Assembly: GCA_034638255.1 (NCBI GenBank) | Contig: JAWPGT010000023.1 | Span: 1-64,000, forward strand | Reading direction: 5' to 3' | Length of the DNA: 64,000 nucleotides | Source: Coprinus comatus | Taxonomy: Eukaryota; Basidiomycota; Agaricomycetes; Agaricales; Agaricaceae | Shown: in pieces, positions 2,659 through 45,814 of the stretch | Position numbering within the stretch: the stretch's first letter is position 1 | Layout: every line of letters begins with the position of its first letter | Made by a program: the position numbers and the translations under genes | The notes under the pieces: generated by a model | The model's database searches: none | What the model was told of the DNA's origin: nothing | Seen by the model: the letters and a program-made list of their open reading frames with translations, nothing else

Positions 2659-4885
2659 ATGGTCCATGCAGCTTTCCAAATTTTGAAGATATCAACAAAT
2701 TGCGACATTCCTGTCCGTAACTCGAAGGATGAGCTCATCCTTGGCCCTCAAATCGTCTGGGAGAGAAAGGAAATCATCGATGGTACTCATGGATCTCTTG
2801 TACCAATTGCATTCCCTTATGATTTCACCTCCGATGTTGGCACTACTGGGGCATTGGATATTGTGCTCCAACCTTCCAGTTCTCGTTCATTTTCTGGAAA
2901 TTATCGTCTTTCCGGTCACATTGATGGCAATAGGGTCTTGGAAAGTGATATATTTACCATTTCCTCCACGAGCGATATAAGTGTTACTGCTAAGGTTGTT
3001 TTACCCAAAACTCATAAAACCCCATTTGCCTGGGCGGGGACTGTCTTTGGAAATTGGAAGTGGATGGAGATACAGATGAAGACTTGGGAGCTACTACCCG
3101 ACTCGAGCTCTATTGGATCGCAGGAGATATTCATGACCTCTTCCTTTCTGGTCATGCTGGTATCGCCGTCGACTTCCTACGTGCTGTTATTCCGAACCTC
3201 AATTTTGCCGGTGATAAGGGTACGTGTGCCAAACAAGGATACCAATGTCTTATTCTTATTTTCCGATGAATTTGGTTAGATGTGGATCGGCCTGAGGCTT
3301 TGGCTCGCTATGATCCTTACAGTGCTACACGTAACACGTTCAACAATTTCTCCAAGGTATATGACTCTGCTGGTGGTGGTACGTATATTAATATACTTCT
3401 TGAATTGTTGTCTTACTTTGCGAAACAGGGAGGTCCTTCTTCTTGATCTCGAACACTCCTCAATATGGCGGTGTTTTCCGATATCAATACTTCATTGCTG
3501 CCAGGATCGGTGGCCGTCCAGGAAGCTTGGCACCCATTGTCAATTGTTATGATCAAGCAGGGATGGTACAGATTGTTAATTCGTTTGGTACCATTGTTCC
3601 CGACCGACCATCCTGGCTTTATATGCAACCTTACGGCTTCATTACTGCGACTTATCTTGTAGGGCTTCCTGGTTTATGCAACAACCCGTTCTATCCGATT
3701 ACTCGAAGCCCGCAATACCTTGAAAACATCAACGACAGTAGAAGAACACCATTTGGTAACCATGCATTCAACGGAAGGTTGGCTAGATGGAGCCCTACCT
3801 CGGACAATATATTTGATGCTTGTGGTGGACCACATGTTGGCGATAACCCTCTATCCTACGTTTCATACGCGATTGACAGGCAGACCACCCTTTATACACC
3901 AACATTCCAACCCGGTCAACTCAAGAATATAGTTCAATGTACTGGAGTGACTGGTACATCACCCAATCGTGATGCTGTCGATCCTCTCACCGCAGGAAAG
4001 GGTCTTGATATATTGATTCAGAGGGCCACTTCAACCAATCCACACTCCAGGGTTTGTCTTCAGTCTCGATGGGACAACGTTTCATCATGGCTCAGATCGG
4101 TGGTTGACGGAGACACTACTGTCGCATTCAGTGATATTCACCATGGCTCTGGTTTTGTTGAGACGCTTTGGCATCTCGCAGGTGTGGAAGGTGTAGGTGA
4201 TGTGGTACTAGATGCGAAAATCCATACCCCCACTGGTTCCACCGACCTTGACCTTTCTCGAGCGTCTGCTGCCGCCCTGGACAGCTTCCAATGCTACCTT
4301 TCGAATGTCCAAATCGATTTGGGAGAGGAAAGCGAGCTTTTGAACACACTCTGGGAACCCGCAACAGTTGCATTCGAATATGCACAATATGCAGTCCAAT
4401 CGGCTTCCCATATCCCTCAAGGTCGTGTTGTCATCGTCTCTGGGAATACCTTGATCAGTATTACTGCAATCGGCGATTCCACTACCAGAGCTTCTTTGGA
4501 ACCATTCTTGAAGAAAGTCCTTTCCCATACAACTATTAGCCAACCAATCTCTCTCTCCACTCCCAAAGTTGACTCTACTCGTTTGAATATCCCAGCTTCT
4601 CGTCAGGGTACTGAGGTCAATGCTATCAAGGGAATTGGTGTTCCTTTCTCTGTTCGTTGCCAAGTCCCTCATCCAATTTCCCTTGCTTCAGCACATGTCG
4701 AGAACCGTGGAGTGTTGTTGAAAGGTTATAAAACTATAGCCGAGACAGGGTCAGAGTTAACAACAATTGAATTTGATTTTGTTACTTGGAAGGTTGGGTC
4801 GCATGAGGTTGAGCTGTTGTTCTCTAGGGCGGAAACGTTGACTGAAGGTAGCCACAAAGTTCGCGTGGAAGTTGTGGAGGGTTAA
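2659..4885 (+). pseudogene. TGL-A: transglutaminase-like family paralogue, one frameshift
   Basis: First member of the five-gene family and sister of TGL-B. Exons by splice consensus and alignment are 2659-3219, 3280-3378 and 3429-4885. Exon 1 is one base short. At about 3035-3042 it reads 'tgggcgggga' where TGL-B reads 'tgggccgggga', so the frame shifts inside the N-terminal domain. The downstream part (TRLELYWI, then DIHDLFLSGHAG) continues in another frame. The rest is open and keeps the predicted triad: Cys in NCYDQ, His in GNHAFNG and Asp in IFDACGGPH. Exon 1 would otherwise have exactly the expected length (562 nt against 565 in B), so this is either a very young pseudogene or an assembly error. 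The product is unknown. The Cys-His-Asp order suggests a papain/transglutaminase-like fold (inference). No signal peptide is visible. Confidence 0.75.
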
Positions 4886-5456
4886 AAAGAAATTGACTGA
4901 AACCATATGCCAGGACAAGATACCGATACTCTTATGGTCTATCACTGGTATCGTTTGTTAAGCCCGTCGACCTCAAATGAGAAGCGAGAAGATTAATTAC
5001 TATATGTCGTTATTGTGTTTGTTAAAAATGTCACAAATTGATTACTGCTACTGGTATCTAACCTTTGTCACTTAGTTCTCCCAATCAGAAAGGTCATGGA
5101 GCTTGCCACGATATAGCAGGGGATACTCCAATATTCTTAATTAAAGTAATCGATTTATTTATGACAAGCCAATCTGTCGCTTTTGAGAGCAGAAATATCA
5201 ACAATTGGTACAAAGTAGAAAATGGAGGTTCGACATTAAACAGGAACATGATTCAACTGATGACAATCTTTACGACACGGGGAGGCCTGGTCTTAGAATC
5301 GAGGATATTTGGTTTCTCCTGTCTTTCCCAATGAATACATTATTCTTAGTCCAATTTAAAACGGGTCAGTGGTACCAATTAGGATGATGTTTAACTCACC
5401 TCTCATCTTTCCTTTCACTCCCTCACTCTTCCTCATTTTCCTCTTCAGTAACCACA
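4886..5456. other. Intergenic, TGL-A 3' flank and next promoter
   Basis: About 570 bp without a convincing gene. The first 100-150 bp are presumably the 3' untranslated region of TGL-A. A pyrimidine-rich stretch (5395-5455, ctcacctctcatctttcctt-like) directly precedes the ATG at 5457 and is typical of fungal core promoters. The ORFs seen here are short and carry no recognisable motif. Confidence 0.5.
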
Positions 5457-6797
5457 ATGAATCAGAACCTTCCATCTGATGCATCCACAATTAAGACACC
5501 GAGACCCATGTATTCAAGACCATATCCTAGACAGAGTCGATCCGGGGATAAGATACCCTTGTGGTCTGGCGTTAATACGGTTTCTAGTGCCAGTGAAAGT
5601 CGATCTGGAAAAAGAAGAGAAGGAGCAGTAACTATGAGTGGAATACCTGCTACGATAGTATCTATAGCGACATTTTTGAAGAATCCGAATCCGAATCCGA
5701 TTACTACTTCTACTAGTATGCACAGGAATACTGGAACAACTCAAATATCGCAGATTCCACTTTTGACTACTTCATTAGCTTCAACTTCTATTCTATCTCA
5801 GTCTGGACCATATGTCTCGAGCTCTACTTCGAGTCTGGGCGTGGGTTTGAGTACGGATGTTGGTTTGAATGTTCCGGGGAGTTTAACAGTGAACCAATGT
5901 TCAAGTATTTCAAATGGAATTCGAACATCTACTAGTGGAACTACCAATATGCAACAACAACTACGGGACCTTGGACTTTCCCCGGAAATGGCGTTTAATT
6001 CTTCTGGACACATTGTCTCACCAATTGTTTCAAACGCCTTAAATAGGTTGGATAAGATTCCGACTTCTATACCTGGGGTCCAGCACAGGACGCATTCGTA
6101 TACCGTTTATCAATGCAAGATACTCTCGGTTAGAAGACAAGAACGAATTCTGGTATTCGATGAAGAGTGGATTCAAGTATGTAGTACTCTCATTTACTTC
6201 GCTCTCGGGACTGCCGTGCGATATTTCAATGCGCTGACAAGCTTAAATTTACTAACTACTCAACATTTAGATTTTGCCTCCAAAAATGAAATATCAATAC
6301 CAATCCTTAGTAGTAAACGATAGTCAGAAATCAGAGATTTATCACATTCGGTTTCTCCATTCAGTGACGGTACAAGCTGGATGGAAAGCTTCTACGAGAC
6401 AAACCAAGTGTTTTAAAGTTGCCGCAAGATTCGAAGCCATCCAATCGTCGCGAAATCGAGTAATAGACGAAAACGAACATACCCCCGATAGTAAGGATTC
6501 AAAGGTTGTTAAGCCTGAGGTGGACTACGGAAGTGAGGGTGATGTGATCGTATTGGAGTTCAAGCAACTATCGGGGGATAACCATATTGGCAAGGTAATA
6601 TCGAAGAGATATGATCTGAGAATGGAGAGCTCGAAGGTGGCTGGTACGTCTGTTTTGTTTTGAGATTCCGTTCAACTCTGATGATTTCCGATGTCATTTC
6701 ATTATACGTTGGATGATACTTGCATCATATGTGTGTAGCTGAGGTGGCAGTAATGTTGAAGCGGGCAAAGCGTGAATTAACTGTAAGTCTGACATAG
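5457..6797 (+). CDS. Uncharacterised Ser/Thr-rich protein (383 aa)
   Basis: I do not recognise the family. Three exons join in frame: 5457-6176, 6271-6643 and 6739-6797, with introns gtatgt...tttag and gtacgt...gtgtag. Residues 1-190 are rich in Ser, Thr, Asn and Pro with little predicted order. Residues of about 190-330 are more conserved-looking and contain basic and aromatic residues (VYQCKILSVRRQER, then IYHIRFLHSVTVQAGWK). No signal peptide or membrane segment is visible. A perfect donor (gtaagt, 6783) overlaps the end of exon 3. An alternative last intron to cacttgcag (6911) would replace the tail VSLT with NMRNA. Two decayed copies lie upstream, and each copy pairs with a TGL gene. This suggests the two genes were duplicated as a unit. 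Gene structure is moderately certain and function unknown. Confidence 0.6.
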
Positions 6798-8640
6798 TAG
6801 ACTGGTAGTAAATGCGAAGTAGATGTTTTAAATTTAAACATGTCACAAATACCACGGTCACAACTGTTGCCTCTTTTCTTCACCTTACCACGCCCCTTCT
6901 CGCACTTGCAGAACATGAGAAATGCTTAAGATAATCACGATGTTGAAGCAGGAATTCATAAATTTCCACTCACTCGTATCTGGACTTACAGCGCGTTTCC
7001 CAACTATTTTCCTATCACCTAAAAAACCAGGGCCGTGATGTAGACGACTCGAGGCGACAAAACCCTGTCAGGTACCTACCAATCCGTCTTGACTCACAAG
7101 TTTGCAGTCGTTGGCGTGGTGTCGTATTGTTTTCTCCCCGTTCCGAGCTCCTCAGGATTAATTTAGACACTTCCCTGCGGTCGAACAAGAATTATGGAAT
7201 ATGGCCCGAATATAGAGGATCATGCAATGACAGTACGCCAGGGGCGGTTTGACAAGCCGCATTATTTGTATGGTGTTTAGAAAAGGAATCACCCAGCCTG
7301 GATGAGGCGCGTCGAGACATATTCCTCGGGTATTCTACCCGATTCTGCGGTATCTTTGTTTGAGAAGTGTAGAATCCGTTCTCGACAAATTTTCTTCCTT
7401 TTCAATAACACTGCGCATTCGAACCCATTCCATCATTATCAGTCGGAAGAAGCTGAACTAGAGGTAATCCTCCCACCCTCGAAACATGTCGCTTGTTTAC
7501 GCAATGCGATATACCCAATCCCAATCCCAATCCTAATCCTAATACCTCCCTGAAACTCTGCTCCGTCCATTCGAACTACTCAGTCTTAAGAAGCTAAAGT
7601 TCAAGGACGATACTTCTTGCACTCGTTTTCTGGACAATTTTCTTTTGAAGGGAACCGCGAACACCAATGACCTTGAAATCTTCTTTTTCAACTTCCTTGG
7701 CCTAGTTATTTATTGTAAGTAGTTACACGGTCGAAAATACAACATATTCAAGTTCTATCACCTCGGATTATCTCTTTCCAGTACACTGACATGAAGAACA
7801 GCTATGGATTAGGGCCAGTTTCTCCCCATTTTCTCACCCATCTCCACCTTTTCTACGAACTAGTGTCAACGCTGACACAGTCGTCAGTGGTCTCGGCTTT
7901 TTCCTCCGGACTCCAGAATCATAAAGACTATCACCTGCTCTAGATTGATCGCTTGAAAGTTGATTGGGTTGTATCATTCTTCCGTTTTATCCTACTAGAA
8001 ACAATCGCAACCGCTTTGTGTTTGACGGGGCCTGTGTAAGTCACATTGGCAGGCTTTTAACTATACAAAAATGGTTTTTTTAGCAGGAAATCATCTTCCT
8101 TTCCTGCTGGGCGTTATTTGTTTTGAAGAGATTCTTTTTGGTCATATCAGATGGATGGGTAGGAATTTGATGAAGTGGATAGAACGGACTTGATGTGGAC
8201 AATTCTTCCAGTAACAGTAACAGCAATTTTTTGGATGAACAAACATGGGATGGAGTTAAGAGGAAGTGGGCACACAGAGAGTTTCATCCAGATTCGGACT
8301 CGGACTATTCAACAGCCGGATTACGTCAAAGTCAAATAACCAATATTTGCCTGTCTATCCGAAAAAATAAACAAAACTACGCTTGAAAGTTTCGATTGAT
8401 CACAGGCAGAAATAACGGGGAACTAACAACATATCGAGATTTGTCAAGTAGCTCCAAACAGTTTGTTTTTTGCGACATTCCCTTTCGTGATGTGAATGTA
8501 GTGTGTGGGGATATAGGCTGTAGTTTTATTCAACTATGTATGCAAGAGTACACAACTGGCGGGCATTGAGTCGTACTATATCCGAAAACTCGTCTTCCAA
8601 GTGTAGGTAATCGTATTCGTGGTGTGTGAAGAATATTAAT
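6798..8640. other. Intergenic, no supported gene
   Basis: I find only short, low-complexity ORFs here, for example one at 7302-7553 ending in a Pro-Ile repeat from 'aatcccaatccc' units and one at 8195-8386 with an Asn-Ser repeat. Neither has a clear start context, partner exon or known motif. The stretch lies between the Ser/Thr-rich gene and the duplicated TGL-B upstream block, and its counterpart is nearly absent before TGL-A. It is therefore either an insertion or sequence lost from the first unit. Confidence 0.45.
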
Positions 8641-9420
8641 AAGTGGTCGTCGGGTCCAGACACAAGCCAGGAAAGTAGCGGTGCGAAGTACGCGGCCACT
8701 GATGTTTACACAGAGCTATTTGTGCTTCCGTCGCAGTGCTTCCTTCGCTTCCGATTATAGTGAGAAGGGTACAGAGGGTCAATGATAGAAGCTGGGATAA
8801 GACTTTACTCATAGGAGTACGGGGAAATGTGCCGTGCATACCTTCTATACTTCAAGCATGTCAGGTTTCAATTTTGCCTCAGAAATGGTACAAACGAGTT
8901 CTTGTGTTAGAGGCTTAGACATGTATGAGCTACAGCAATATCAGAACTTCTGAGGTAAGTTGAAGGCACCGATGGACGGTATGCAAGAATGAATATTTGA
9001 ATATTATATTGATCAGGTGTAACATTGGCGTGTGAGTCCGGTGACTTACTTTTGGCTAAATTCACCAACGTCATCAAATGGTCAGACAAAGTGAATCATA
9101 GTTGAGCGCATTGTGATTGTCGATACTTGTTTTAGACTTATAGAATACCCGGCAAGGAACATCTGTGCACAAAATAGGAAGCTCTTCTTCGCAACTCCAC
9201 CAAAAAACCACATATACCCAAGGAATCTCCACGTAACTCCACCCAACTCCTGTATTCCTCTTCCAAAGAGCCTATCATGGCTAAGATAACACTATCCGGA
9301 TAAGGCTTGCAAGGCATTGAATACAAACCCTCTTTGGAAAGTTCAATCTTGACAGATGGATAAAAGCATACTGGAAGGTGTACATTGGGTCAACAGCTCT
9401 ACTTCTCTCGACACTTGACA
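8640..9420 (+). repeat. Upstream block of TGL-B, partner of 1500-2580
   Basis: Diverged copy of the block before TGL-A (see 1500-2580 for shared landmarks). It ends with a TATA-like GATAAAAG (9359-9366). The following leader contains a likely 50-nt 5'-UTR intron (9423-9472, gtgagt to atgcag), then GATAAACTCTTG before the ATG at 9494. The same leader and intron occur before TGL-A, so these two paralogues share promoter architecture that differs from that of TGL-C, D and E. Confidence 0.6.
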
Positions 9421-9493
9421 TCGTGAGTCCTCTACCATCACCCTTCAAACTATCTACAACCTCAATATGCAGGATAAACTCTTGAATTAAATC

Positions 9494-11748
9494 ATGAAGA
9501 TCGACCGATCTTTCCGAATTCTGAAAATATCAACAAAATGTGATATTCCTCTGCGTAATTCGAAGAAGGAACTCATCCTCGGCCCTCAAATCGTCTGGGA
9601 GGGAAAGGACGTCAATGATGGTACTCATGGATCCCTTGTGCCAATCGCATTCCCTTATGATTTCACCTCTCGTGTTGACTCTACCGGAGCATTGAATCTC
9701 ACACTCCAACCATCTAGTTCTTGTTCACTTTCTGGAAACTATCGTCTTTCTGGTCACATTGATGGCAATAGGGTCTTGGAAAGTGATACATTTACCATTT
9801 CCTCCACGAGCGATATTAGTGTTACTGCTAAGGTTGTTTTACCCAAAACTCGTAAAACTCCATTTGCCTGGGCCGGGGACTGTCTTTGGAAATTGGAAGT
9901 GGATGGAGACACAGATGAAGACTTGAGAGTTGCTACCCGACTCGAGCTCTATTGGATTGTGGGGGATATTCATGACCTCTTCCTTTCCGGTCATGCTGGT
10001 ATTGCTGTAGAATTTCTGCGCGCTGTTATTCAGAATCTCAATTTCGCTGGTTATCGAGGTACGTGTGCCAAATTTAAATAGGAGTACCAATGTCTTATCG
10101 TCCGATTCATTTGGTTAGATGTAGAAGAGGTTGGCGTTGAGGCCGTCGCTCTGCAATACGAACCTTCCCGTGCTACAATTAACACGTTCAGTAATTTCTC
10201 CAAGGTATATGACTCTGCTGGTGGTGGTGCGTACATTCACACACTTTATGGATTGTGATCTTACTTCACGAAATAGGGAGGTCCAATTTCGTGATCTCAA
10301 ACACTCCTGGATTTGGTGGTATTTTCCGATACCAATATTTCATTGCTGCCAGAGTCGGTGGTGGTCCTGGCAGCTTGGAACCCATTGTCAACTGTTATGA
10401 CCAAGCAGGGATGGTACAGATTGTTGATTCATTTGGTAGTATCGTTGCCGACCGACCATCCTGGCTTTTCATGCAACCATATGGTTACATTGTTTCAACA
10501 TATCTGGTGGGACTCCCGGGTTTATGCAACAATCCATTCTTCCCGATGACTCAAAGCCCACAATACATTGGCATCAACGATCCTAGAAGAACATCATTTT
10601 ACAATCACGCATTCAATGGAAGGCTAGCTACATGGAGCCCTACCTCTGACAGTATCTTTGACGCTTGTGGTGGGCCGCATCTCGGCGACAACCCTCTGTC
10701 CTACGTTTCATCCACAATTGACAGGCAAACCACGCTTTATACACCCCAATTCCAGCCCGGTCAGCTCGGTAATATAGCGCAACATCCAGGAGTTACCGGC
10801 ACCTCTCCCACTCTTTCTGCTGTCCATGCTCCCCCTGCCGGGAAAGGTCTTGAGACCTTGATTCAGAGGGCCACTTCCACCAATCGTCACTCCGGGAGAT
10901 TCTTGCAGTCTCGATGGGATAACATTCCTTCATGGCTCCAATCAGTAGTCGACAGAAACACTACTGTGGCTTTCAGTGATATTCACCATGGCTCTGACTT
11001 TGTTGATGTACTTTGGCATCTCGCAAATGTGGCCGGTGTGGGTGACGTCGTATTGAATGCGAAAATCCATACCCCAGCTAGTTCGGACGATCTAGATCTT
11101 TCCCGAGCATCTGCTGCTGCCCTGGACAGCTTCCGATGCTACCTTGCGAATGTCCAAATCGATTTAGGAGAGGAAAGCGAGCTTTTGAACACACTCTGGG
11201 AACCTGCAACAGTTGCATTCGAATATGCACAGTATGCAGTCCAATCGGCTTCCCGTATTCCTCGCGGCCATGTAGTGATCGTCTCTGGAAATGCTTTGAT
11301 TAGTGTCACTGCAATCCGCAACTCCACCACTAGTGCTTCGTTGGAACCGTTCTTGAAGAAAGTCCTCCATCATACAACTATTAGCAAACCGATCTCTCTT
11401 TCCATTCCTAAAGCAGACTCTACTCGTTTAAGCATCCCAGCTTCTCGTCAGGGTACTGAGGTCAATGTCATTATGGGAATTGGTGTTCCTTTCTCCATTC
11501 GTTGCCAAGTCCCTCATCCAATTTCCCTTGCTTCAGCACATGTCGAGAACCGTGGGGTGTTATTGAAAGGCTATAATACTACAGTCGAGAGGAGGTCAAA
11601 GTTAACGACAATTGAGTTTGATTTCGTTACTTGGAAGGTTGGGTCGCATGAGGTTGAGCTGTTATTCTCTATGGCGGAAACGTTGACTGGTGGTAGTCAT
11701 AAAGTTCGTGTGGAGGTTGCAGAGGGACAAGAAGTGTTAGTTTTGTAA
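9494..11748 (+). CDS. TGL-B: transglutaminase-like family protein (714 aa)
   Basis: Intact member of the five-paralogue family. Exons 9494-10058, 10119-10226 and 10277-11748 join in phase 1/1 and give 714 codons. The N-terminal domain (about 1-190) is beta-rich and ends in TRLELYWI and a conserved segment DIHDLFLSGHAGIAVEFLR. The central domain (about 230-350) carries Cys in NCYDQA, His in YNHAFNG and Asp in IFDACGGPH. These residues come in the order and spacing style of transglutaminase-like cysteine enzymes (inference from motif order only). After a variable linker a C-terminal region of about 300 residues is again beta-rich. There is no signal peptide or transmembrane segment, so the protein is probably cytosolic. 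The nearest relative is TGL-A. Whether it is a protease, transglutaminase or inactive binder cannot be told from the sequence. Confidence 0.85.
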
Positions 11749-17995: not shown

Positions 17996-20227
17996 ATGAC
18001 GGGTTCACACAACTTTCACATTCTGAAGATATCGGGAAAGTCCGATCTTCCTCTACGTAACTCCCATGATGATCTTATTCTTGGGTCTCATGTATTGTGG
18101 GATCATACCAAACATGCTGAACATCGCGACTCTCTCTCCCCAAATATATTTGCTCATGACTTCACCAGCCCAATTGCGTCCACCGCCTCTCTTAATGTAA
18201 CCATCAAAACCTCACATCACTTCGCAAAGCCAGAGCACAAGTACCGCCTTTGTGGTTCCATTGGACGTACCAAGATCATCGAGAGCGACTGTTTTGTTCC
18301 TTCTCAAGATGAAACCAATGTAGTTGTCAAGGTCGTGCAACCTGAAATCAGTAACAGGCCATTTGCGTGGAATGGCGATTTTACCTGGACATTGGAGAAT
18401 GAACAAGACTCTACGGGAACTATCGGTCATCACACGCATACTCACCTCGAGCTTTATTGGATTTCGAAAGACATTCATGAAATATTTCTTGGAGAACATC
18501 CAGGAATTCCTGTTGAACTTCTCCGCATTGTCATCCCAAACCTGGCTTTGTCGGGCTTAGGTACTTCCAGCGCTACATTCTCTGGATTGTAAACTAACGA
18601 AGTTATTCTCTTTCTTTAGGATTATTATCTTCGACCACTCGGTACTTCGATCCTTATAACGCCACAAACCTCACTTTCTATCACTTCTCCAAGAGATATG
18701 ATACTACACAAGGCGGGTTGTCATGTATGGGGCCGCGCTCAATATCTGATATATATATTTCTAGGAAGGCCTCGCTTCGGTGTTAATGGTGGTGGGGGAA
18801 CCTTTAATTATAGTTATTATATTCAAGCCGCACCCGGTGGACCGGCAGGAAGCATGCAACCACTCGTGAATTGTTATGACCAAGGGGCCATGATGCAAGT
18901 GGTAGAGTCCTTTGGTCATGTCGTCCAAGATCGACCATCATGGTTATATTTGGCACCTTACGGGTTCATATTACCAACCTCCCTTGTTGGCGTCCCGGGT
19001 ATCTGTAACAACCCCTTCTTCACGTCCAATGGTTCTCCACAAAATATCGGAGTCGATGACCCTCGAAGAACTGCATTTGGGAACCACGTCTTCAATGGAA
19101 TTCTGCCTTTATGGGATCCCAACCATGATCGTATCTTTGATGCTTGTGGAGGGCCACATACTGGGGATGACCCACAGATGTATGTGGATACATCTATCGA
19201 CAGAATAACCCATCTTTATAACCCTCCGTTCCGCCCGGGGACTCCTTACGATATTGTCCAGTACGCTGGGGTCACAAACACCACCAGGTTGGCTCCTTTT
19301 TCCGATATCATCAAGGCGGAAGCAATGGCAAGTAAAGGTGTTGAAAGGTTGATCAAAAGAGCAGCTTCCCATCAACCGAGATCTAGTGCACTTTTACAGA
19401 ATCATTGGGACGATGTACCAAGTTGGGTCAGACATGTTGCTGGACACAATTCCTCGATCGCATTCCATAGTGACCACTTTGGTAACGGGGGTGAAACGGT
19501 TCATGAGCTTTGGCACCTCTCTGGCGTTGCACATGGTATCGAAGGTGGAGACCTTGTCTTACAGATTAACGTTCATACTTCGGTCTCTTCGAGTGGTACA
19601 TTGGATCTTCAGAGGGCATCTGTCGCTGCTCTTGATAATCTTCGATATGAGCTGAAGAATACGGATATGTATCTTGGTCCGGACGACGAATTATTGAATA
19701 CTCTGTGGGAACCTTCACCAGTGGGACAGGAGTATTCTCAGTATGCAGTCCAATTGGCATCGCAGGTACCTCGTGGACACATATTGATTGTCTCGGGAAA
19801 CACTGTCATTAGCCTTTACGGTGGATCCTCAAGTGCATCGCTCGAGCCACTTGTCCGCAGACTCCTTTCCCATACAACGATCTCTCATCCCATCTCTCTT
19901 TCTGTCCCGAAAGAATCCTCTCATCGATTCAATATTCCTGTACACTGGAGAGGCTCTGAAGAGAATGTCGTGAAAGGTGTTGGTACCTCCTTCACTATTC
20001 GCTCTCAAGTACCCCATCCTATTTCTATTGCATCGGCAATCGCCAAAGACAGTGGAGTGTTGTTGAAAAACTATACCATTGAACATCATGAAGAAGAATC
20101 TACAATCATCTTCGAATTCGTAACATTCAAGATTGGAACTCATGATGTCGATATATTCTTCGCAAGAACTCTCATGCTGACTGGAGGAAAGAAGAGTATT
20201 AAAGTTGTGGTTGAGGAGGCTGACTAA
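17996..20227 (+). CDS. TGL-C: transglutaminase-like family protein (706 aa)
   Basis: Intact family member. Exons are 17996-18560, 18620-18712 and 18765-20227. The start MTGSHNFHILKIS was chosen because it aligns with the other paralogues and lies 56 bp after a TATA box. The second intron begins with GC (gcgggt, 18713) where D and E have gtgggt, so it is a GC-AG intron. The N-terminal domain ends in THLELYWISKDIHEIFLGE. The central domain has Cys in NCYDQG, His in GNHVFNG and Asp in IFDACGGPH. The C-terminal part, with conserved LWHLSGVAHGIEGGDLVLQ and NTLWEPSPVGQEYSQYA, matches D and E closely. The NCYDQA alanine is Gly here. No signal peptide is visible. Function is not established. The Cys-His-Asp series suggests a cysteine-dependent hydrolase or acyltransferase fold. 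Confidence 0.85.
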
Positions 20228-21321: not shown

Positions 21322-23628
21322 ATGGCGGCAAACTTTCAGATCCTGAGGATATCGGGAAACTCCGATCTTCCTTTTTCTAACTCCCGACATGAAGTTATTC
21401 TTGGATCACATGTGTTGTGGGAACGTACCGAGCGCTCTAATGCTCAACCTCGTATCTCTCTCTCATCCAACATCTTTGCTCATGACTTCACCAGTCCAAT
21501 TGCTTCTACTGCCTCTCTTGATGTGACTATCAAAGCCTCTGATCACTTCGCGCAGACAGAAGTCCAGTATCGCCTTAGTGGCTACATTGAAGAGTTTAAG
21601 GTCTTCGAGGGCGACTACTTCACTGTTCCTTCTCAAGATGAAACCAACGTTCCTGTCAAGGTGGTAATACCTGCAACCAGTAACAGGCCCTTTGCGTGGA
21701 CTGGCGATGTTAACTGGTTACTGGAACACCCGGAAGAATCCACTGGGTTTATCCGTCATGCAATAGATACTCATCTCGAACTTTATTGGATCTCGAAAGA
21801 CATTCACGAAATATTCCTTGGAGAATTTCCCGGAATTCCTATATCACTTCTGCGCGTTGTTATTCCAAATTTGGCTGTGTCAGGATTAGGTACCTTCCAC
21901 CGCTTCTCCCTCCTAGAATGACAACTACTAATGAAGTTATTCTCTTTCTTTAGGAATATTAGTTGCGCCGGCGCAAGGTGTCGTTGACACACATATCCCT
22001 GCAAATCTTACTTTCTCTCAATTGTGCAAGAAATACGATACTACTGAAGGTGGGTTGTCATATGGAAGGGATCAGAGCACCTGATCTGATGTATTCTTCC
22101 AGGAAAGTCTCGCTTTCGTGTTAACGGTAGTGGAGGAACCTTCAATTACCGTCTATATATTGCCCCAATATGGAGTGGACAGGCAGGAAGCTTACAGCCT
22201 ATTGTGAATTGTTATGATCAAGCTGCTATGACGCAAGTGGTGGAATCATTTGGGCATCTCGCCGCTGATCGACGGTCATGGTTATACATGGATCCATTCG
22301 GCTTCATATTACCAACCAATCTTGTTGGTATTCCTGGTCTTTGTAACAACCCCTTCTTCATGTCCAACGGCTCTCCACAACATATCGGAGTCAATAACCA
22401 ACAAAGAACTCCATTTGGGAATCACGCCTTCAACGGAATGTTACCTGTATGGAATCCCGACCAAGATCGCATCTTTGATGGCTGCGGTGGACCACACACG
22501 GGAGATGACCCACAGGCATATGTAGATGCATCTATCGACAGAACAACCACTCTATATAACCGTTATGAGAACTTCCGCCCAGGAACGGTCAACGATATCG
22601 TCCAGCGTAATGGGGTCACAAACACCAACATAGCATTGGTTCTTCATGTTCCTGATGTTGCTGATGCTCCTGGTGTTGCTGGTGTTGCTGATGCTCCTGG
22701 TATCGCCGAAGCCGGAGCAATCACAACCGCAAGTAGTGGTGTTGAAACATTAATTCTCAGTTCAGCGTCCCCTCAGCCCGGTGCGAACATCCTTTTACAG
22801 AACCACTGGGACGATGTACCCATCTGGATCAACACCGTTGCCGGAGCCAATACCTCAATTGCGTTCCATAGTACTAACTTTGGAAATGGGGGTGGCAGGG
22901 TCCACGAGCTTTGGCATCTTTCTGGCGTTGCACATGGTATCGATGGTGATGACCTCGTCCTACAGGTCACTGTCCACACTTCGGTCTCTTCGAATGGCAC
23001 GTTGGATCTTCAAAGCGCATCCGCTGCTGCTCTTGATAACCTTCGATACGAGCTGACGAATACGGATATGTATCTGGGTCCGGACGATGACTTATTAAAT
23101 ACTCTGTGGGAGCCTTCACCGGTGGGACAGGAGTATTCTCAGTATGCAATGCAATTGTCTCCGAATGTACCTCGAGGACACATTATGATTGTCTCGGGAA
23201 ACACTGTTATTGACCTTTACGGAGGATCCTCAAGTGCATCACTTGAGCCACTTGTTCGCAAACTCCTTTCCCATACGACAATCTCTCGTCCTATCTCTCT
23301 TTCTATCCCTAAAGAATCTTCTCATCAATTTGATATTCCTACACCATGGAGGGGATCTAAGGAGAATGCCGTTAAAGGTGTTGGTACCTCTTTCACCATT
23401 GTTTGTCAATTACCCCATCCTGTTTCTGTTGCATCGGCAATCGCTAAAGACGGTGGAGTGTTATTGAAAACCCATACCATCAAAGGCAATGCAGAAGAAT
23501 CTGCAATCACATTCGAATTCGTAACGTTTAAGATTGGAATTCATGATGTCGATCTATTCTTCGCAACAACTCACATGTTGACCGGAGGAAAGGAGAGTAT
23601 TCAAGTTGTTGTCGAAGAAGCAAACTAA
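21322..23628 (+). CDS. TGL-D: transglutaminase-like family protein (729 aa)
   Basis: Intact. Exons 21322-21889, 21954-22049 and 22103-23628 join in phase 1/1 with GT-AG introns. Domain order is as in TGL-C: an N-terminal beta-rich domain to about residue 190 (THLELYWISKDIHEIFLGE), then the central domain with Cys in NCYDQAA, His in GNHAFNG and Asp in IFDGCGGPH. The C-terminal region ends VVVEEAN. Between the centre and the C-terminal region is a short imperfect Asp/Ala/Pro/Val repeat (DVADAPGVAGVADAPGIAEA) that is absent from TGL-C and replaced by a Pro/Ala-rich tract in TGL-E. This marks the linker as the fastest-changing part. It lies 1.1 kb downstream of TGL-C on the same strand, consistent with tandem duplication. 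No signal peptide is visible. Function is unknown. Confidence 0.85.
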
Positions 23629-38196: not shown

Positions 38197-38238
<42 letters not shown>

Positions 38239-39057: not shown

Positions 39058-39285
39058 ACTTATTAATAAATATTGATTATTGTAAGTATTAAACAGATAT
39101 GGATCATATGTATGACATGTCGAGAGCAGTTGACATGTTGAGACTTGAGATGCATCAATAGTGTTGATACTCAAGACATATCAACATGGTGTTGAGGCTC
39201 AAGATATGTCAATACTGTGTTGACATGTCATGCACATAATTATATCTATTTAATAATCAACAATCTTGAATATTTATTAATAAGT
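39058..39285. mobile_element. 228-bp palindromic MITE-like element
   Basis: The ends are perfect 15-bp inverted repeats, ACTTATTAATAAATA on the left and TATTTATTAATAAGT on the right. Pairing continues inward (ttgattattg against caataatc-type text, and atgacatgtc against gacatgtcat). The centre repeats 'gttgacatgttgag' and 'gttgaggctcaagat' motifs. No ORF is present. Size, terminal inverted repeats and internal symmetry fit a miniature inverted-repeat transposable element. Family is unassigned. Confidence 0.6.
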
Positions 39286-39794
39286 GTGTGCTAAATATAG
39301 TATCTTCGAATATGTTTACATGTAGGCTGACACATCATACTGTCGGTAGTTAAAATACCTGGTGAGTGAGGAAAGCCTAGGCCAGTGTACAGTGTACACT
39401 GTAGTGGTAATTTTGGCAGTGGATATTAATAGATAGAAGTGCCAAATTATAGCTGAATTATAGTAGGACAACTTTATGACAGGAATCCCTCTAATTAGAG
39501 GTGGCACCAGGGCCTGATGCCGCTTCCAATTAGAGTGACAGTTTGGGTGCCACAGGTGTTCTACCAACCAACAGTTGAAAACCCCAATCTTACAACTACT
39601 ACCGAAGTCAACCTTGCACAAACCCTATTCTACAGCAATGAACTTGCAAACCTCAGAAATGCAGTCCATGACAAAATCATTGCTCTAGACCTATTCCCTA
39701 CATCATCACCTATCCAAACTCATCCTCCTACCAACCCCAACCCCTCATCACCCAATGACACTTCTATCCACTCAAATTCACAACATCAGGATTT
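39286..39794. other. Spacer between palindromic element and element 2
   Basis: Contains an open stretch (39517-39819) rich in Thr, Pro, Asn and Ser. It may be the 3' end of a decayed transposon ORF, but it has no motif, start or upstream exon that I can identify. Confidence 0.35.
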
Positions 39795-41740
39795 CGTGCA
39801 TGTCCTTGGAGGTGCTTGAAGTTACTTAGAAAGGCATCCAAGGAACTCCAAGTACACCCCAATAGAATTCAAAGAAGAGTAAAATTATCCTTAGAGTTCC
39901 TTAGAAAATTTGTCCCAAGGAGCTCCAAGTAGGTCCCTCTAACTTGGGTGTACTTGAATAGCTTTGAACATACTTGGACAGCACATAAAAGTTACTTTCC
40001 TACCTTGTAACAATATTTTTCAGGGTTCTATTTGCATTTTCAGGACAATTCAAGTACTCTCAAGGTCACATCAAGTATGGAATAAAAATAATATCATTGA
40101 AGTTGTAATAATACATGTCATATACTAACTTAGTTTACAGTATTACTACATGTTCATACCTTTATATCAAAAGAGAGACTGTAATAGTAAAATAAGTAAT
40201 TTATTAGGATAAAATAGAGAAAAAAGCGAACCTAAGAAGTATTTCTTGAATGATGTGTCACAAAGATCACATCGCGGGGAGAGTAATACTGGGCCATTTT
40301 GTATGTAAAAACCAGCATTCGAGAGTGGTGATTAATGTGGTTTTAACGAGCCTAGACACAAATGGATTGGACAGGGATTGAGGGACTTGTTAGATATTTA
40401 GTTGGAGAGAAATATATAAATAGCAACTTACCAAAGATGTACACGTCAGTACATCAGTTTTGAGCGGTGTGCAGTGAAAGTGGTATCATTTGAATGGCGC
40501 CATGTAGACGGTTTTAATGAGCCTAGGTACAACAGGAATGCATGGATAATGAGCGACATATTTAATATTTAGCTGGGGAGGAAGAAATGTGGTAACTTAC
40601 CAGAGATGTGCATGTCGGCACATGGGTTTTGGACAGTGTGCAGTGTGGATGGTATCATTTGAATGGCGTCATTTAGGTGATTCCAATGAGCCTAGATACA
40701 AAAGGAGTGCATAGATATTGAGTGACATATTAAATATTTAGTTGGGGAGGAACATATATGGTAACTCACCAGAGAGGAGTGTGTCAGCACCGGAGTTTTG
40801 GGCAGTGTGCAGTGCGGATGGTATTGTTCAAACAGCATTGTTGAGACGGTTGTAATGAGCATAAAATTATAAGGATTGAACATGTATCAAGCGAAATATT
40901 ACATATTTAGTTAGAGTGACTCACCTAGGACCTAGTACCAGAGTATTGCTCACTACACCTCCAATCCTTCCCCACAGCACAATTAACTTCGGTCAGTCAT
41001 GAAGGAGTTACAGGTGGTCTAAACGAGCCTAGGTAAATGTTTCTATGTGAAGAAATGAGTGAGACAGCCTCAGGATACTACAGAGTGATGACATACCAAT
41101 ATTATTCATGCCATACCATGAGAATTAGACCATAGCATGTGTGGCTAGGCTTGTTCAAAGTGGGAAAAAAAGCTGGTTCCGAAGAGCCAAGACGTGTTCC
41201 GAAGTGTGATGAAATGAGTACAACAGACCAAAAACATTGTATGCTTACCTTGTTCAATAAAGTGGCTGTTATAGTACAAGTACTAAACCATGCAACACAT
41301 AACTGCCATCATTCAAAGCAAAACGTTGAGACAATTCTAGAGAGCCTAGAAACGTGAGATTCCGTTAGGAATTGAGTGAATAGGGATGTGATGATGTGGC
41401 AGAGGTATTATGATCTCGTGAGGTTGTTGCTATTAGGATGTGATGTGTAGTGAGTGATGTGTGATGAGGAGAGCAGGATGTCACACTCATCTGCTTTTTT
41501 TGCAAAGTCCAAATTTGATAACATCAAAAGTTTTAAAACATATGTGATGATCAATAATCATTGATCAGAACAAAAACAAATAGTGTTAATGATGTAAACT
41601 AAAGTTTAACATTTTTCGTGAGCAAGTAAAGCTTGAGGATTTACTTGGTTCTATCCTTGACCTAACTTGGAACTAAAAAGCTCCTCAGAGTACCTTGGGC
41701 CATTTTTCACCAAGGATGTACAAGTTGTTAAGAACGGGGA
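39795..41740 (-). mobile_element. Non-autonomous element 2 with CCAAGGAG-rich ends
   Basis: Relative of element 1 in the same orientation. The left end has 'catccaaggaactccaagta' and then 'cccaaggagctccaagtagg', continuing 'tccctcta', as at 32571. The right end (41640-41740) has 'tcctcagagtaccttgg' and 'caccaaggatgtacaag'. The interior has no long ORF. It carries the tandem exon-intron-like array described at 40348-41032 and, near the right end, 'gatgtgatgtgtag' and 'aagtccaaattt' blocks shared with element 1. It may derive from the same family as the broken ORF at 33839-35770, which it flanks. Ends are approximate. Confidence 0.5.
40348..41032 (-). repeat. Tandem ~169-bp units with conserved splice sites (minus strand)
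   Basis: On the plus strand, gagcctag or a variant recurs at 40348, 40519, 40688, 40857 (mutated to gagcataa) and 41025, a period of 168-171 bp. Read on the minus strand, each unit has CTAG|GCTC, then an exon-like segment (91 nt in the three central units), then GTAAGT or GTGAGT (donors at 40431, 40600, 40769 and 40924). An AT-rich stretch with a 'ctaaat' branch-like motif leads into the next CTAG. The acceptor next to 40857 is lost. Only one segment (40691-40601) is open throughout in one frame, reading HWNHLNDAIQMIP, and the others hold stops. The array may therefore be non-coding or dead. Confidence 0.7.
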
Positions 41741-42640
41741 TCGGAGATGAGCTAGCGATGTCGGATTGAGGCTTCAGCTTCAACGTATGTGTTGCGCCCT
41801 TCCGATACTGTGATTAGCCTCACTTGCAAGAGGACTGAATGGTCGGAAAGAATGTCAGGAGGAATTACGGAGGAGAGTAGAGAACGAGAGCAGAGACAAG
41901 ATTGACTTAGAGTTGGAACAAGACAGAGACAGAGATGAGTGTGGATACTATGTTGATATCAGACTAAGGAATGTACATGAGCGACTAGCGATTAAATACA
42001 TTGTTTACCGATATCGGAATATAACATATCAAAACATAAGATAACAGGACAACGGGCCGACATACTAAAAAGGATGATGCCAACCGAAAAGGGAAGTAAC
42101 CGAAACAGGAAGTTGGAATAGGACGAGCAGATAAGAGTAGGGCTGCCACCCGTAACTGTATAATACAGTTTACGGGCCACCTGTATATGGTATACGGTAC
42201 TGTACTGTAAGAGCGATCAAGCAGCCTCAATACGGTACGGTTGACGGTACGGAGTGTACCGTACTGTACCGTATTTTTTGCCCGTCGACGGCCGTATGGA
42301 CAGTAGTCGGTCATGACATCATGTGATAGCATCACATGGTACGTCGAAACGTCATCGATTCATAACATGGGGTTGACCTCAGTCTCTCCTCAATCAGCAA
42401 CATAAACTCTCTCACAATGCCACAGTCATCCACTATTTCTAGAGTATTTTTACAAAAATTACAAGAACAACACTTGTATTTTTATCTGATTTCTATATTT
42501 ATAACTCTATATATTGAGTCTTGAATGTTTAATAAGTTAACGCATTTCCTGATGTGTATCTAAGGCAATAAAACCGGCACACGAGTTATACTGTGTTATT
42601 GCCGGATTTGCTAAACAACTTACTAACGATAATTGACTGA
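41741..42640. other. Repeat-derived spacer with hairpin-forming DNA
   Basis: No gene is supported. At 42149-42178 a near-perfect inverted repeat (CCCGTAACTGTAT / ATACAGTTTACGGG) forms a hairpin. It is followed up to about 42315 by repeated TACGGTAC and GTACCGTA text that also pairs with itself. The segment 41745-41960 is GA-rich and could belong to an LTR, but no partner LTR was found. Confidence 0.45.
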
Positions 42641-42647
42641 GCAAGAT

Positions 42648-42945
42648 TGGTAATTCCACTCCGACTCCAGATATTCCAAAGAAGAAAAAGCGTATCAAAG
42701 CCCTAACAACACAACAAGAATGAAGGTTAGTAACTTACCTCGATGACCGTTTCTTAGAACTAATGAGCAATATAAAAGGCGGTAATGTATTCTTCCCCAA
42801 TCGAAATACAATTAACATTGTGACTAATACTACTACAACGTGAATATGTTATAGTTCCACTTCAATAACAAAAGTCCCAACATTACATTGTTACATAACA
42901 TACACTCGTTAATTATCGGTTTTTTGATCCACTTCAAGTAGTCAG
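42648..42945 (+). pseudogene. Truncated copy of the 5' end of the gene at 46986
   Basis: It aligns over about 300 bp with 46930-47225. Shared text includes 'attccactcc', 'atcaaagccctaacaacaca', 'gttagtaacttacctcga', 'ttcttagaactaatgagc' and 'aagtcccaacattacattgt'. The ATG is changed (aagcgt for atgggt), and an Arg CGA has become TGA (caagaatgaagg). Similarity stops soon after, so only exon 1, the intron and the start of exon 2 are present. It lies downstream of TGL-E while the intact gene lies upstream of it, both on the plus strand. Confidence 0.8.
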
Positions 42946-43550
42946 TATTGAAATATTGAAATAGTTCATTACAATCTGGGAGCAAAGTTGTGGGGGGAGT
43001 TATTGAATTTGAAAAAAGGATTATTTTCACAAAGTCCAATGCCTAAACTCCTATTAAACTCGAACTCGAAGTGGGAGAAGAAATGTACAAAGACGGAAAT
43101 CAAGATTAAATAAGACACCGAAACTAAAAGATCAGTTAATAGAAGTATGATATCCGACTTTGGTTTCATCATCCCTAGGTGGTGCATAACAACTAGTAAC
43201 AGTAATCGGATTTATAAGTTGTCAAAACGTGGTAGCATTCGGCTGCCCCCACTTTTCTAAGACTCACGAACTGATAAACTTCAAAGGAAACTTACTTTAA
43301 AGAAACTAAAAAACATAGTCATAAATTTGAAGGCGAGTGAAGGGAACAAAGCAAGTACTCGTCTGTTGCAAAAGAAAAACTGCATTTATACTATGTATCC
43401 CAAGATCTCGGTTCCAAAAGCAACAAAATCATAACATCGTAACATCGTAAGTAATCGTAATCAAGACACCACCGTAACCTATACTACATATATCCTACAT
43501 TTACATTTCAACTTGACTACAAGAGAATTGTTACCATTCATTCAACAAAC
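42946..43550. other. TGL-E 3' flank
   Basis: Minus-strand 3' flank of TGL-E. The text complementary to 43440-43545, such as 'ggttacggtggtgtc', matches the TGL-D 3' flank (about 23690-23720). The remainder is AT-rich with short ORFs and no motif. Confidence 0.5.
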
Positions 43551-45814
43551 TTAGTTTGCTCCTTCAACCACAACTTGAATACTCTCCCCTCCTCCAGTCA
43601 ACATATGAGACCTCGCAAAGAATAAATTGACATCATGAATTCCAATCTTAAACGTTACGAATTCAAATGTAACCGTAGATTCTTCTGCATTACCTTTGAT
43701 AGTATAACCCTTCAACAATACACCTTGATCTTTAGCGATTGCCGATGCAACAGAAACAGGATGCGGTAATTGATAAACAACAGTGAAAGAAGTACCAACA
43801 CCTTTAACCGCATTCTCTTTAGATCCCCTTCGTGGTGTAGGAATATCTATTTGATGAGAAGACTCTTTCGGGATGGAAAGAGAGATAGGTCGAGAGATCG
43901 TGGTATGGGAAAGGAGTTTACGAACAAGGGGTTCAAGAGAGGCACTGGATTTCCCACCGTAAAGGTTAATGATAGTATTTCCCGAGACAATCAACATGCG
44001 ACCTCGAGGTACCTTCGAAGACAATTGTACTGCATACTGAGAATACTCCTGTCCAACAGGAGAAGGTTCCCACAGAGTCTTCAATAATTCATCGTCCGGA
44101 CCCAGATACATATCCGTATTCGTCAGCTCGTATCGAAGGTGATCAAGAGCAGCAGCGGATGCCTTCTGAAGATCCAACGTGCCATTCGAAGAGACGGCAG
44201 TATGAACACTGATCTGTAAGACAAGGTCTCCACCATCGATACCATGTGCAACGCCAGAAAGATGCCAAAGTTCATGGATCCGGCTACCCCCATTTCCAAA
44301 GTCAGTACTATGGAACGCGATTGAGGTATTGGCTCCAGTGACAGTATTGATCCAGGTAGGTACATCGTCCCAGTGGTTCTGTAAAAGGATGTTTGCCCCA
44401 GCGTGATGAGAGGCTGAATTAAGAATCAATGTTTCAACACCGTTGCTTGCGATCGCAACAGCAGGAACCGGGATAACAGGAGGAGCCACGACAACAGCAG
44501 CGTCCGGGGCAGCACCAGGAGGAGGCGCTGGAGCGGCAGGAGGTGCTGCCGCTGGAACAGGAGGTACTGGAGCGGCAGGAAGTCGAACCCCAGGACGCTG
44601 GACAATGTTGTTAATATTTCCAGCCCACGGTTGATCCACATCGATAGATGCATCCAAATACGCCTGCGGGACTTCTCCGATATGTGGTCCACCGCAAGCG
44701 TCAGAGATTTTATCCCAGGCGGGATTCCATACAGGTAACCTTCCGTTAAAAGCGTGGTTCCCGAATCGAGTTCTGTCTGGGTCATCAGCTGCGACGAGTG
44801 GTTGAGAGACAGTGGACATGTAAAAGGGGTTGTTACAGAGGCCAGGAACACCAATAAGGCTCGTTGGTAATATGAAGCCAAATGGTTCCATAAATAACCA
44901 TGAACCTCGATTTGCGGCGAGATGACTGAATGACTCCACCACCTGTGTCATAGCGGCCTGATCATAACAGTTCACAGTAGGCTGCAAGGTTCCTGGTTGT
45001 CCATCTGGTAGTGCAGCGATATAATCACGGTAATTAAATGTTCCCCCAGAACGGTTAACATCGAAATGAGGCGCTCCTGGAATTATACATCAGATATTGA
45101 GCATGAGGTTCCACATAATACAACCCACCTTGCATAGTATCATACCTCTTGTTGAATTGAGCGAAAGTGAGATTTGTAGGGTTGAAAGCGTTGTCATCTT
45201 GTACGTGCGCATCCAACATTGCTAAAGAAATATAATAGTTTCATTAGTCGTCATTCTAGAGGTATAACGGTAGAGGTACCTAATCCGGTTACAGCCGGGT
45301 TTGGAATAACAATACGAAGAAGCGTTACGGGAATTCCGGGAATTTGCCCAAGAAATATTTCATGAATATCTTGTGAGATCCAATAAAGCTCGAGATGAGT
45401 AGATACATCATGATGGATAATGGCAATGGGTCCAACGCGTTCCAGTCTCCAGATAAAATCTGCATTCCACGCAAAGGGCCTGTAACTGTTTGCCGGTGCC
45501 ACCAGTGTGACAGGAATGTCGGCTTCTGCTAGAGTAGGAACGAAGGGGTCGCTTTCGAAGATAATGATACCACCAACGAAGCCACGAAGGCGGTACTGGT
45601 CATCAGGATCACCCAAGTCACCAAAGATTATGATGGCTACAGTAACGGCAGAAGCAATTGGATTGATGAAGTCATGAGTGAAGATGTTGGGCGAGAGAGT
45701 GAGTGCACCGCCGATAGGTTCCCATAATATGTGTCCTCCAAAAACAAAATTGTCTTCGGCGTCGCGTAGAGGAAGGTCGGAATTTGCTGATATCCTTTGG
45801 ATTTGAAAGTTCAT
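43551..45814 (-). CDS. TGL-E: transglutaminase-like family protein (717 aa)
   Basis: Intact and inverted relative to the other four. Exons 45814-45280, 45221-45129 and 45076-43551 join in phase 1/1. The N-terminal domain is shorter than in C and D and ends THLELYWISQDIHEIFLGQ. The central domain has Cys in NCYDQAA, His in GNHAFNG and Asp in ISDACGGPH, where Ser replaces the usual Phe just before Asp. The linker is a Pro/Ala/Val-rich tract of about 50 residues, unlike any paralogue. The C-terminal region, with HELWHLSGVAHGIDGGDLVL, is close to D. The gene lies 20 kb from TGL-D, has the same promoter block and 3' flank, and is bracketed by direct copies of a neighbouring gene's 5' end. This suggests it arrived by a duplication or insertion that carried its flanks along. 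Function is unknown. Confidence 0.85.

What the first reader, a model, noticed from the sequence alone, without database searches (positions are those of the whole stretch)
2659..45814. Five-gene cluster of an undescribed Cys-His-Asp protein family (TGL-A to E)
Seen: five genes of about 700-730 codons share three exons with identical intron phases. All keep Cys in NCYDQ, His in NHAFNG or NHVFNG, and Asp in (F/S)DACGGPH or FDGCGGPH, about 110 residues apart in total. Known: papain/transglutaminase-like enzymes use Cys, then His in an 'HAW/HVF' strand, then Asp after a hydrophobic strand. Inference: this is a divergent, non-secreted transglutaminase-fold family expanded in one locus, flanked by beta-rich N- and C-terminal domains. 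Local expansion, pseudogenisation and variable linkers are typical of genes in defence, self-recognition or conflict, but no partner proves that role.
Basis: partly seen in the sequence, partly recalled or inferred. Interest (0 to 1): 0.88.

Follow-up and report, generated by a model that had tools for sequence, protein, structure and literature searches.

The report
Fungal genes kin to bacterial weapons
A fungus carries a cluster of genes that look like a bacterial injected enzyme joined in one protein to the antidote-like protein that bacteria often keep as a separate neighbouring gene, which suggests that fungi took over a self-restrained bacterial weapon.

Summary
In detail: five three-exon genes, with Cys, His and Asp in nine of nine copies with open exon 3 in this genome and in 41 of 41 aligned relatives. 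A transglutaminase fold is supported by the predicted structure of a full-length relative, not by sequence profiles. New is the ancestry. In eight of eight bacterial loci whose neighbours I scanned, relatives sit near type VI secretion genes (VgrG, PAAR-like, DUF2169, DUF2345). In 15 of 20 loci a partner-like gene, usually with an export signal, follows at once, most simply an immunity protein. In Aminicenantes, Archangium and Chitinophaga the partner is fused to the enzyme. The fungal C-terminal region looks like its diverged homologue (hhalign up to 89%, E 2e-6, lower with other sequence sets; shuffles far lower). A tree without that region still separates 15 fused from 40 unfused proteins (97/96), fungi beside Chitinophaga. 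One solo copy of the partner-like domain exists in the genome. Selection is purifying. Best reading: one bacterial effector-immunity fusion entered fungi, expanded, and makes a cytosolic, self-restrained transglutaminase-fold enzyme, probably for defence. Ancestry and architecture are well supported; inhibition and the defence role are inferred.

The parts
2659..4885 (+). Gene A: exons 2659-3219, 3280-3378, 3429-4885; exon 3 open with Cys, His, Asp; frame broken in exon 1 (same in the overlapping contig)
9494..11748 (+). Gene B: exons 9494-10058, 10119-10226, 10277-11748; 714 aa, introns phase 1 and 1
17996..20227 (+). Gene C: exons to 18560, 18620-18712, 18765-20227; modelled from 17882, but the start that lines up with the other copies is Met at 17996
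21322..23628 (+). Gene D: exons 21322-21889, 21954-22049, 22103-23628; 729 aa. Domains (by homology to the P0004 model): beta-sandwich, transglutaminase-fold core (Cys, His, Asp in exon 3), immunity-like alpha/beta domain, Ig-like domain
43551..45814 (-). Gene E: exons 45814-45280, 45221-45129, 45076-43551; 717 aa, introns phase 1 and 1; proline/alanine-rich linker between core and C-terminal domain

Best explanation
Each gene encodes a bacterial type VI secretion (T6SS) effector of a transglutaminase-fold family joined in one chain to the homologue of that effector's immunity (antidote) protein. The order is: N-terminal beta-sandwich, transglutaminase-fold core with Cys-His-Asp, immunity-like alpha/beta domain, Ig-like domain. 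Shown by computation: beta-sandwich and core are homologous to bacterial T6SS-linked proteins; in most bacterial loci the next gene encodes a partner, usually exported; in some bacteria that partner is fused to the enzyme; the fungal proteins have the fused layout and group with the fused bacterial ones. Inferred: the partner is an inhibitor (its position, tight spacing and export signal are those of T6SS immunity proteins), so the bacterial enzyme acts in the target's periplasm. Inferred: the fusion arose once in bacteria and passed once to fungi, where it duplicated. Most likely working mode in the fungus, inferred: a cytosolic zymogen whose C-terminal domain restrains the core until cleavage or ligand binding frees it, so that the enzyme modifies (cross-links, deamidates or cleaves) proteins of an invading bacterium or of a feeding animal. 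Subjective odds: ancestry and fusion about 0.85; inhibition in cis about 0.55; defence role about 0.45.
For: T6SS link: VgrG, PAAR-like, DUF2169 or DUF2345 genes within about 5 kb of the enzyme gene in 8 of 8 loci whose neighbours I scanned with Pfam (L012, L013, L016, L017, L021, L028, L058, L059; scanned because the ORFs looked T6SS-like); 3 of 41 aligned proteins are fused to Tox-PAAR-like and 1 to LysM. Partner: a same-strand ORF follows at once in 15 of 20 loci (3 are fused; 2 show none, L022 and the cut-off L028); spacing about -20 to +15 nt in 11 of 11 measured; 17 of 19 partner-type proteins have a hydrophobic N-terminus (12-residue mean of 1.8 or more, threshold set after looking) against 0 of 14 effector, fused and fungal proteins. 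Fusion: 18 partner-type proteins (12 of them seen beside an effector) against 5 fused bacterial C-termini, hhalign 99.95%, E 3.4e-38, 257 columns. Fungal C-terminus: 7 fused bacterial and other fungal C-termini against 9 agaric ones 87.8%, E 3.3e-6, 242 collinear columns; the 25-sequence profile gives 89.2%, E 2.2e-6, score 50.6, against at most 20.5 for 100 column shuffles, with the agaric N-terminal and core parts at 13.4 and 12.1; BLASTP of gene D's C-terminus against the free partner of L012 E 1e-4 over 181 columns in a 23-sequence set. Tree without the C-terminal domain: 15 fused against 40 unfused 97/96; fungi with Chitinophaga L015 97/81; the split is clean in length too, 364-451 residues from the Cys motif to the end in 9 fused rows checked, 123-229 in 39 unfused. 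Macrophomina P0028 and L015 share an extra N-terminal domain (E 4e-13). Solo partner-like gene in the same genome. Fold. Purifying selection. Introns and a SUV3-type helicase in the window argue against bacterial contamination.
Confidence: 0.6

Rival explanations
1. Anti-predator version: same ancestry, but the fungal proteins are stored cytoplasmic toxins that act when nematodes, mites or insects eat the mycelium, with the C-terminal domains serving target binding or stability rather than inhibition.
For: No secretion signal by hydropathy in the fungal proteins; cytoplasmic proteins abundant in fruiting bodies are linked to resistance against predation (PMC6238071, abstract; PMC10512399, listing and start of abstract); fungal papain-like chimerolectins exist (reference titles seen in PMC13324453); the Chitinophaga and Macrophomina members share an extra N-terminal domain that I take for aegerolysin-like by eye only.
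Against: No Pfam domain, lectin or membrane-binding, was found in the agaric members scanned; bacterial kin point to interbacterial use.
Confidence: 0.25
2. Self-recognition or poison-antidote locus: the fused genes and the solo partner-like gene form a fungal toxin-antidote set that acts in heterokaryon incompatibility or spore killing.
For: Clustered multigene locus with variable linkers and one broken member; a solo C-terminal-domain gene at C23:105950-107239, about 60 kb past gene E.
Against: Purifying rather than diversifying selection in all three domains (Ka/Ks 0.14-0.38); no population data; no incompatibility domain in the ten window ORFs scanned, single open frames only.
Confidence: 0.12
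3. The bacterial downstream protein is an exported co-effector, adaptor or chaperone rather than an inhibitor, and the fusion merely ties two cooperating subunits.
For: Reasoning only: the fusion keeps both in one chain, odd for a toxin with its own inhibitor.
Against: Tight downstream spacing, export signals and a second partner copy beside one effector (L059, one on each side) are the pattern of T6SS immunity.
Confidence: 0.2
4. Ordinary fungal transglutaminase or protease with a housekeeping role; the bacterial resemblance is convergent or reflects old vertical descent.
For: Purifying selection; animal transglutaminases have a similar order of beta-sandwich, core and C-terminal beta domains.
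Against: Of 40 homologues found, 7 have the fungal layout (2 of them named as fungal) and 33 are shorter, bacterial where named; fungal proteins fall beside bacterial fused ones.
Confidence: 0.1

Closest known systems
Animal transglutaminases (TG2, TG3, factor XIII) and protein 4.2
   Different: About 7% identity; no sequence-profile match at cut-off; a partner-like alpha/beta domain lies between core and Ig-like domain.
Tox-TGase and other papain-like toxin domains of polymorphic toxins (Zhang et al. 2012, PMC3482391, passages seen)
   Same: C, H, D catalytic set on a papain-like fold used as a toxin.
   Different: The passages list Tox-TGase with T2SS, T3SS and PVC delivery and no immunity protein; here T6SS delivery and an adjacent partner. 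No alignment between the two was made.
EAT14, eCIS-associated toxin with a transglutaminase-like domain (PMC11297309, passages seen)
   Same: Contractile-injection cargo with a transglutaminase-like domain, reported toxic to E. coli and yeast; its authors leave open whether it is a protease.
   Different: DUF4157 N-terminus and eCIS; no sequence link tested.
dae genes: T6SS amidase effectors transferred to eukaryotes (Chou et al. 2015, seen only as a reference in PMC6299479; content recalled)
   Same: Interbacterial effector taken over by eukaryotes.
   Different: Amidases without a fused immunity domain, from recall; the present core matches no NlpC/P60 Pfam model.
Cytoplasmic fungal defence proteins of fruiting bodies (PMC6238071 abstract; PMC10512399 listing)
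   Same: Unsecreted fungal proteins with a possible defence role.
   Different: Lectins and lipases there; toxicity of the present family is untested.

Membership tests
Transglutaminase-like superfamily | Conserved Cys, His, Asp in that order | tested here: met
   41 of 41 rows; 9 of 9 open exon-3 copies of the fungal genome; in a 17-row set reaching further, Cys and Asp 17 of 17, His 16 of 17, the exception L050
Transglutaminase-like superfamily | Transglutaminase fold | tested here: met
Transglutaminase-like superfamily | Match to the Pfam Transglut_core profile at its cut-off | tested here: not met
   1 of 17 members at E 0.096; so described as transglutaminase-like fold, not filed in that Pfam family
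Transglutaminase-like superfamily | Triad geometry in space | not testable with these tools
   Model coordinates are not exposed; secondary structure only
Transglutaminase-like superfamily | Cross-linking, deamidating or proteolytic activity | not testable with these tools
   Needs an enzyme assay
T6SS effector-immunity pair (bacterial relatives) | Linked to VgrG, PAAR or chaperone-type genes, or fused to PAAR | tested here: met
   8 of 8 loci Pfam-scanned, chosen for T6SS-like ORFs; PAAR-like fusion in 3 of 41
T6SS effector-immunity pair (bacterial relatives) | Immediately adjacent partner gene, exported if the effector acts in the periplasm | tested here: met
   15 of 20 loci, 3 more fused; spacing in 11 of 11 measured; hydrophobic N-terminus in 17 of 19
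T6SS effector-immunity pair (bacterial relatives) | T6SS-dependent toxicity and neutralisation by the partner | not testable with these tools
   Needs competition and rescue assays
T6SS effector-immunity pair (fungal proteins) | C-terminal region homologous to the partner protein | tested here: met
   Through fused intermediates up to 89.2%, E 2.2e-6, shuffles far lower; partner-type proteins alone not significant
Tox-TGase (PMC3482391) | Sequence homology to that domain | not tested
   No sequence of it was fetched
dae / Tae amidases | NlpC/P60-type Pfam match | tested here: not met
   Over 41 rows only Tox-PAAR-like, PAAR motif and LysM at E 0.01 or better; window exons none but a chance-level Endo_dU

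The most novel reading that the evidence does not exclude
A fungal genome runs a true toxin-antidote locus built from a bacterial T6SS effector-immunity pair: nine gene copies whose product carries poison and antidote in one polypeptide, and a solo antidote gene nearby, used for allorecognition or for controlled release of an intracellular weapon.
Probability: 0.2. Interest if true: 0.92.

Novelty: new variant of a known kind. Interest (0 to 1): 0.78.

Why it matters
It describes an enzyme family that I found in none of the curated libraries searched (Pfam, NCBIfam, PADLOC, PHROGs) and gives it a likely job in bacteria: a T6SS effector of transglutaminase fold with a candidate exported immunity protein. 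It then indicates that fungi carry the fused version, so the question of how a eukaryote can keep a transferred bacterial toxin without harming itself gets a directly testable answer here: the antidote is built in. It also offers a prokaryotic family that may share the beta-sandwich-plus-core layout of animal transglutaminases.

Tried and rejected
Pfam, NCBIfam, PADLOC, PHROGs and PDB sequence searches gave no family for the core or the partner. The structural list for the window's own exon 3 showed only matches to its Ig-like end, so P0004's model carries the fold argument. A search with one partner protein found only itself and one relative; a 10-row alignment found 7 proteins, 5 of them new. 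The partners of Verrucomicrobia/Planctomycetes relatives match the main partner group at 93%, E 3e-7, but not the fungal domain (0.5%). No relative in plasmid or phage records with the query used, the effector of L010. Contamination rejected: introns, a 382-kb contig, a SUV3-type helicase; the P450 match is below its cut-off. Positive selection rejected: Ka/Ks 0.14-0.38 in 27 comparisons of 9 pairs; the C26:264k copy was left out there because my script took the wrong frame, its exon 3 being open with C, H, D.

Rows dropped before the second tree: P0038, P0040, P0039, P0027, L027 (flagged long), P0001 (under half of the columns), L016 (identical to P0036); L061, L062, L058 were added. L014 was also flagged long in the first tree and kept. 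The first tree gave the fused group 98/92 for 14 rows.

Literature: 0 papers; 2, neither on point by listing; 0; 8; 7; 4; 2; one search held 721 papers of which 10 were listed. I saw listings only, apart from passages of PMC3482391, PMC11297309, PMC10433429, PMC13324453, PMC6299479 and the outline with abstract of PMC6238071. The library holds open-licence papers only.
Full report
OBSERVATION. The window lies in a 35.7-Mb genome whose genes here have introns; the nearest named protein is from Crepidotus variabilis, an agaric by recall, so 'agaric' below is inference. Genes B-E have three exons, introns in phase 1 and 1, and open proteins of 714-744 codons as modelled; A has the same layout with a frame break in exon 1. 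Contig C26 overlaps the window's start over 5,753 alignment columns at 99.76%, with 10 gap openings and 1 mismatch, so the locus extends leftward, or the contigs are alleles. The genome has nine copies with open exon 3 (A-E, C26:264k, 322k, 328k, C10:384k), Cys, His and Asp in nine of nine, one broken fragment (C26:262k), and one ORF that holds only the C-terminal region (C23:105950-107239).

RELATIVES. One search with gene D's exon 3 found 40 proteins at E up to 0.001 among 7,991 scored candidates: five of the window's layout (one named, Crepidotus), one from Macrophomina phaseolina, one of similar layout without a name (P0013), and 33 shorter ones of 321-530 residues, of which three carry bacterial names and the rest none. 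Cys, Tyr, Asp and Gln of NCYDQ, the His and the Asp are invariant in 41 of 41 aligned rows. In a 17-row set that reaches further, Cys and Asp hold in 17 and the His in 16, the exception being the distant L050; one effector of L058 reads CFDQ and EHAF. A scan of species genomes gave 20 loci from Pseudomonadota, Myxococcota, Bacteroidota, Aminicenantes, Verrucomicrobiota, Kiritimatiellota, Planctomycetota and unnamed bacteria. The family is rare: 3 of 300, 2 of 298 and 4 of 195 genomes, the starting genome counted in each.

BACTERIAL CONTEXT. In eight loci I scanned neighbouring ORFs with Pfam, chosen because they looked T6SS-like, and all eight have T6SS parts within about 5 kb of the enzyme gene: VgrG-type domains (L016, L017, L021, L059), DUF2345 (L028), Tox-PAAR-like (L012, L013, L058 twice, L059) and DUF2169 (L012, L058, L059). 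The other loci were not scanned. Three of 41 aligned proteins are fused to Tox-PAAR-like and one to LysM. Of the 20 loci, 15 have a same-strand ORF directly after the enzyme gene, mostly of about 190-320 codons (899 in L027, cut by the contig end in L013), three are fused, and two show none (L022; L028 at a contig end); homology among these partners was not tested for L020, L023 and L027. Spacing is about -20 to +15 nt in 11 of 11 measured (hand-entered coordinates, L013 three bases off). Seventeen of 19 partner-type proteins (three of them not seen beside an effector) have a hydrophobic N-terminus, against 0 of 14 effectors, fused and fungal proteins; the threshold was set after looking. L058 has two modules in tandem, the first effector ending early beside the second, and L059 has a partner on each side of its effector. 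By analogy with known T6SS pairs this is an effector and its periplasmic immunity protein; that is inference. In L018, L022 and L026 the enzyme itself begins, by eye, with a signal-like stretch, so delivery differs there.

THE FUSION. In L011 (Aminicenantes), L014 (Archangium), L015 (Chitinophaga), L061 and L062 (unnamed G476, and a second copy in L015's genome) the partner's sequence continues the enzyme's own chain. Eighteen partner-type proteins, 12 of them seen beside an effector, match these five C-termini at 99.95%, E 3.4e-38 over 257 columns. The C-termini of Macrophomina P0028 and P0013 match the first three fused bacterial ones at 96%, E 3.9e-9. The agaric C-terminus matches the seven fused bacterial and other fungal C-termini at 87.8%, E 3.3e-6, collinear over 242 columns; with all 25 sequences it is 89.2%, E 2.2e-6, score 50.6, against a maximum of 20.5 in 100 column shuffles and 13.4 and 12.1 for the agaric N-terminal and core parts; reversed profiles reach at most 0.32%. 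Against this, the result depends on the set: 15% with three fused rows, 29-47% with free plus fused bacterial rows, 75% with five fused bacterial rows, and 0.3%, 0.8% and 3.8% with 8, 13 and 18 partner-type proteins alone. A plain BLASTP of gene D's C-terminus hits the free partner of L012 at E 1e-4 over 181 columns in a 23-sequence set; four of nine agaric C-termini gave a hit at E 0.05 or better.

HISTORY. A tree of the N-terminal and core region only, which leaves the fused domain out, puts 15 fused proteins on one side and 40 unfused on the other (97/96). The ten fungal-type rows form one group (100/97) beside Chitinophaga L015 (97/81); L011, L014, L061 and L062 lie outside them (first tree). 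From the Cys motif to the end, 9 fused rows checked have 364-451 residues and 39 unfused 123-229. P0028 and L015 also share an extra N-terminal domain (E 4e-13). The simplest account is one fusion in bacteria and one passage to fungi; the root is a midpoint and one deep fork among the fused is weak (91/61).

FUNCTION. Ka/Ks lies between 0.14 and 0.38 in 27 comparisons (nine pairs, three domains), the immunity-like domain about as constrained as the core. That is expected if both parts still work, and speaks against decay and against rapid conflict-driven change. The fungal proteins show no secretion signal by hydropathy. I therefore favour a cytosolic enzyme held in check by its built-in antidote and set free on demand against bacteria or feeding animals; cytoplasmic defence proteins are known in fruiting bodies (PMC6238071, abstract). 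The solo partner-like gene fits an extra antidote, but could equally be a relic.

NOVELTY. Transglutaminase-type toxin domains (PMC3482391, passages) and a contractile-system toxin of that kind (PMC11297309, passages) are in print, and transfer of T6SS effectors to eukaryotes is known (Chou et al. 2015, seen as a reference). In the listings (10 of 721 listed), 73, 74 and 86 I saw no report of this family, its partner or a fungal effector-immunity fusion. I rate it a new variant of a known kind.

Noticed in passing
G000:C23:105950-107239 (L034:1951-3240): A 430-codon ORF with only the immunity-like and Ig-like domains, 33-39% identical to the C-termini of the fused copies, and no transglutaminase core in the 1.9 kb before it; a possible solo antidote gene.
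   Followed up: partly
window:42686-42923 and 46984-47206: Direct repeats of 89-92% identity flank gene E at about 4.3-kb spacing, as left by a duplication or a mobile element.
   Followed up: no
window:1-5745: The start of the window is the same DNA as the end of contig C26, with indel-type differences, so the contigs are neighbours or alleles and indels in the assembly are uncertain.
   Followed up: partly
window:40425-40931: Three tandem copies of a 169-nt repeat (81% and 62% to the first) in a stretch of high GC skew.
   Followed up: no
window:30508-31752 (-): An antisense ORF of unknown kind that ends in a long Glu/Asp run encoded by a simple repeat; no Pfam match.
   Followed up: no
L015:6972-7400 and P0028 residues 1-154: A shared N-terminal domain of the Chitinophaga and Macrophomina members that looks aegerolysin-like by eye, with no Pfam match.
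   Followed up: partly
L018, L022, L026: Verrucomicrobia, Kiritimatiellota and Planctomycetes relatives begin with signal-like stretches by eye, so a second delivery route may exist.
   Followed up: partly
L050:1993-2643: A distant relative with NCTDC, HEVAW and DACL in place of the usual motifs, a possible bridge to ordinary transglutaminase-like domains.
   Followed up: no
L058: Two tandem effector modules in one unnamed myxobacterial-phylum genome, 88% alike, with the divergence concentrated in the core half of the effector.
   Followed up: no
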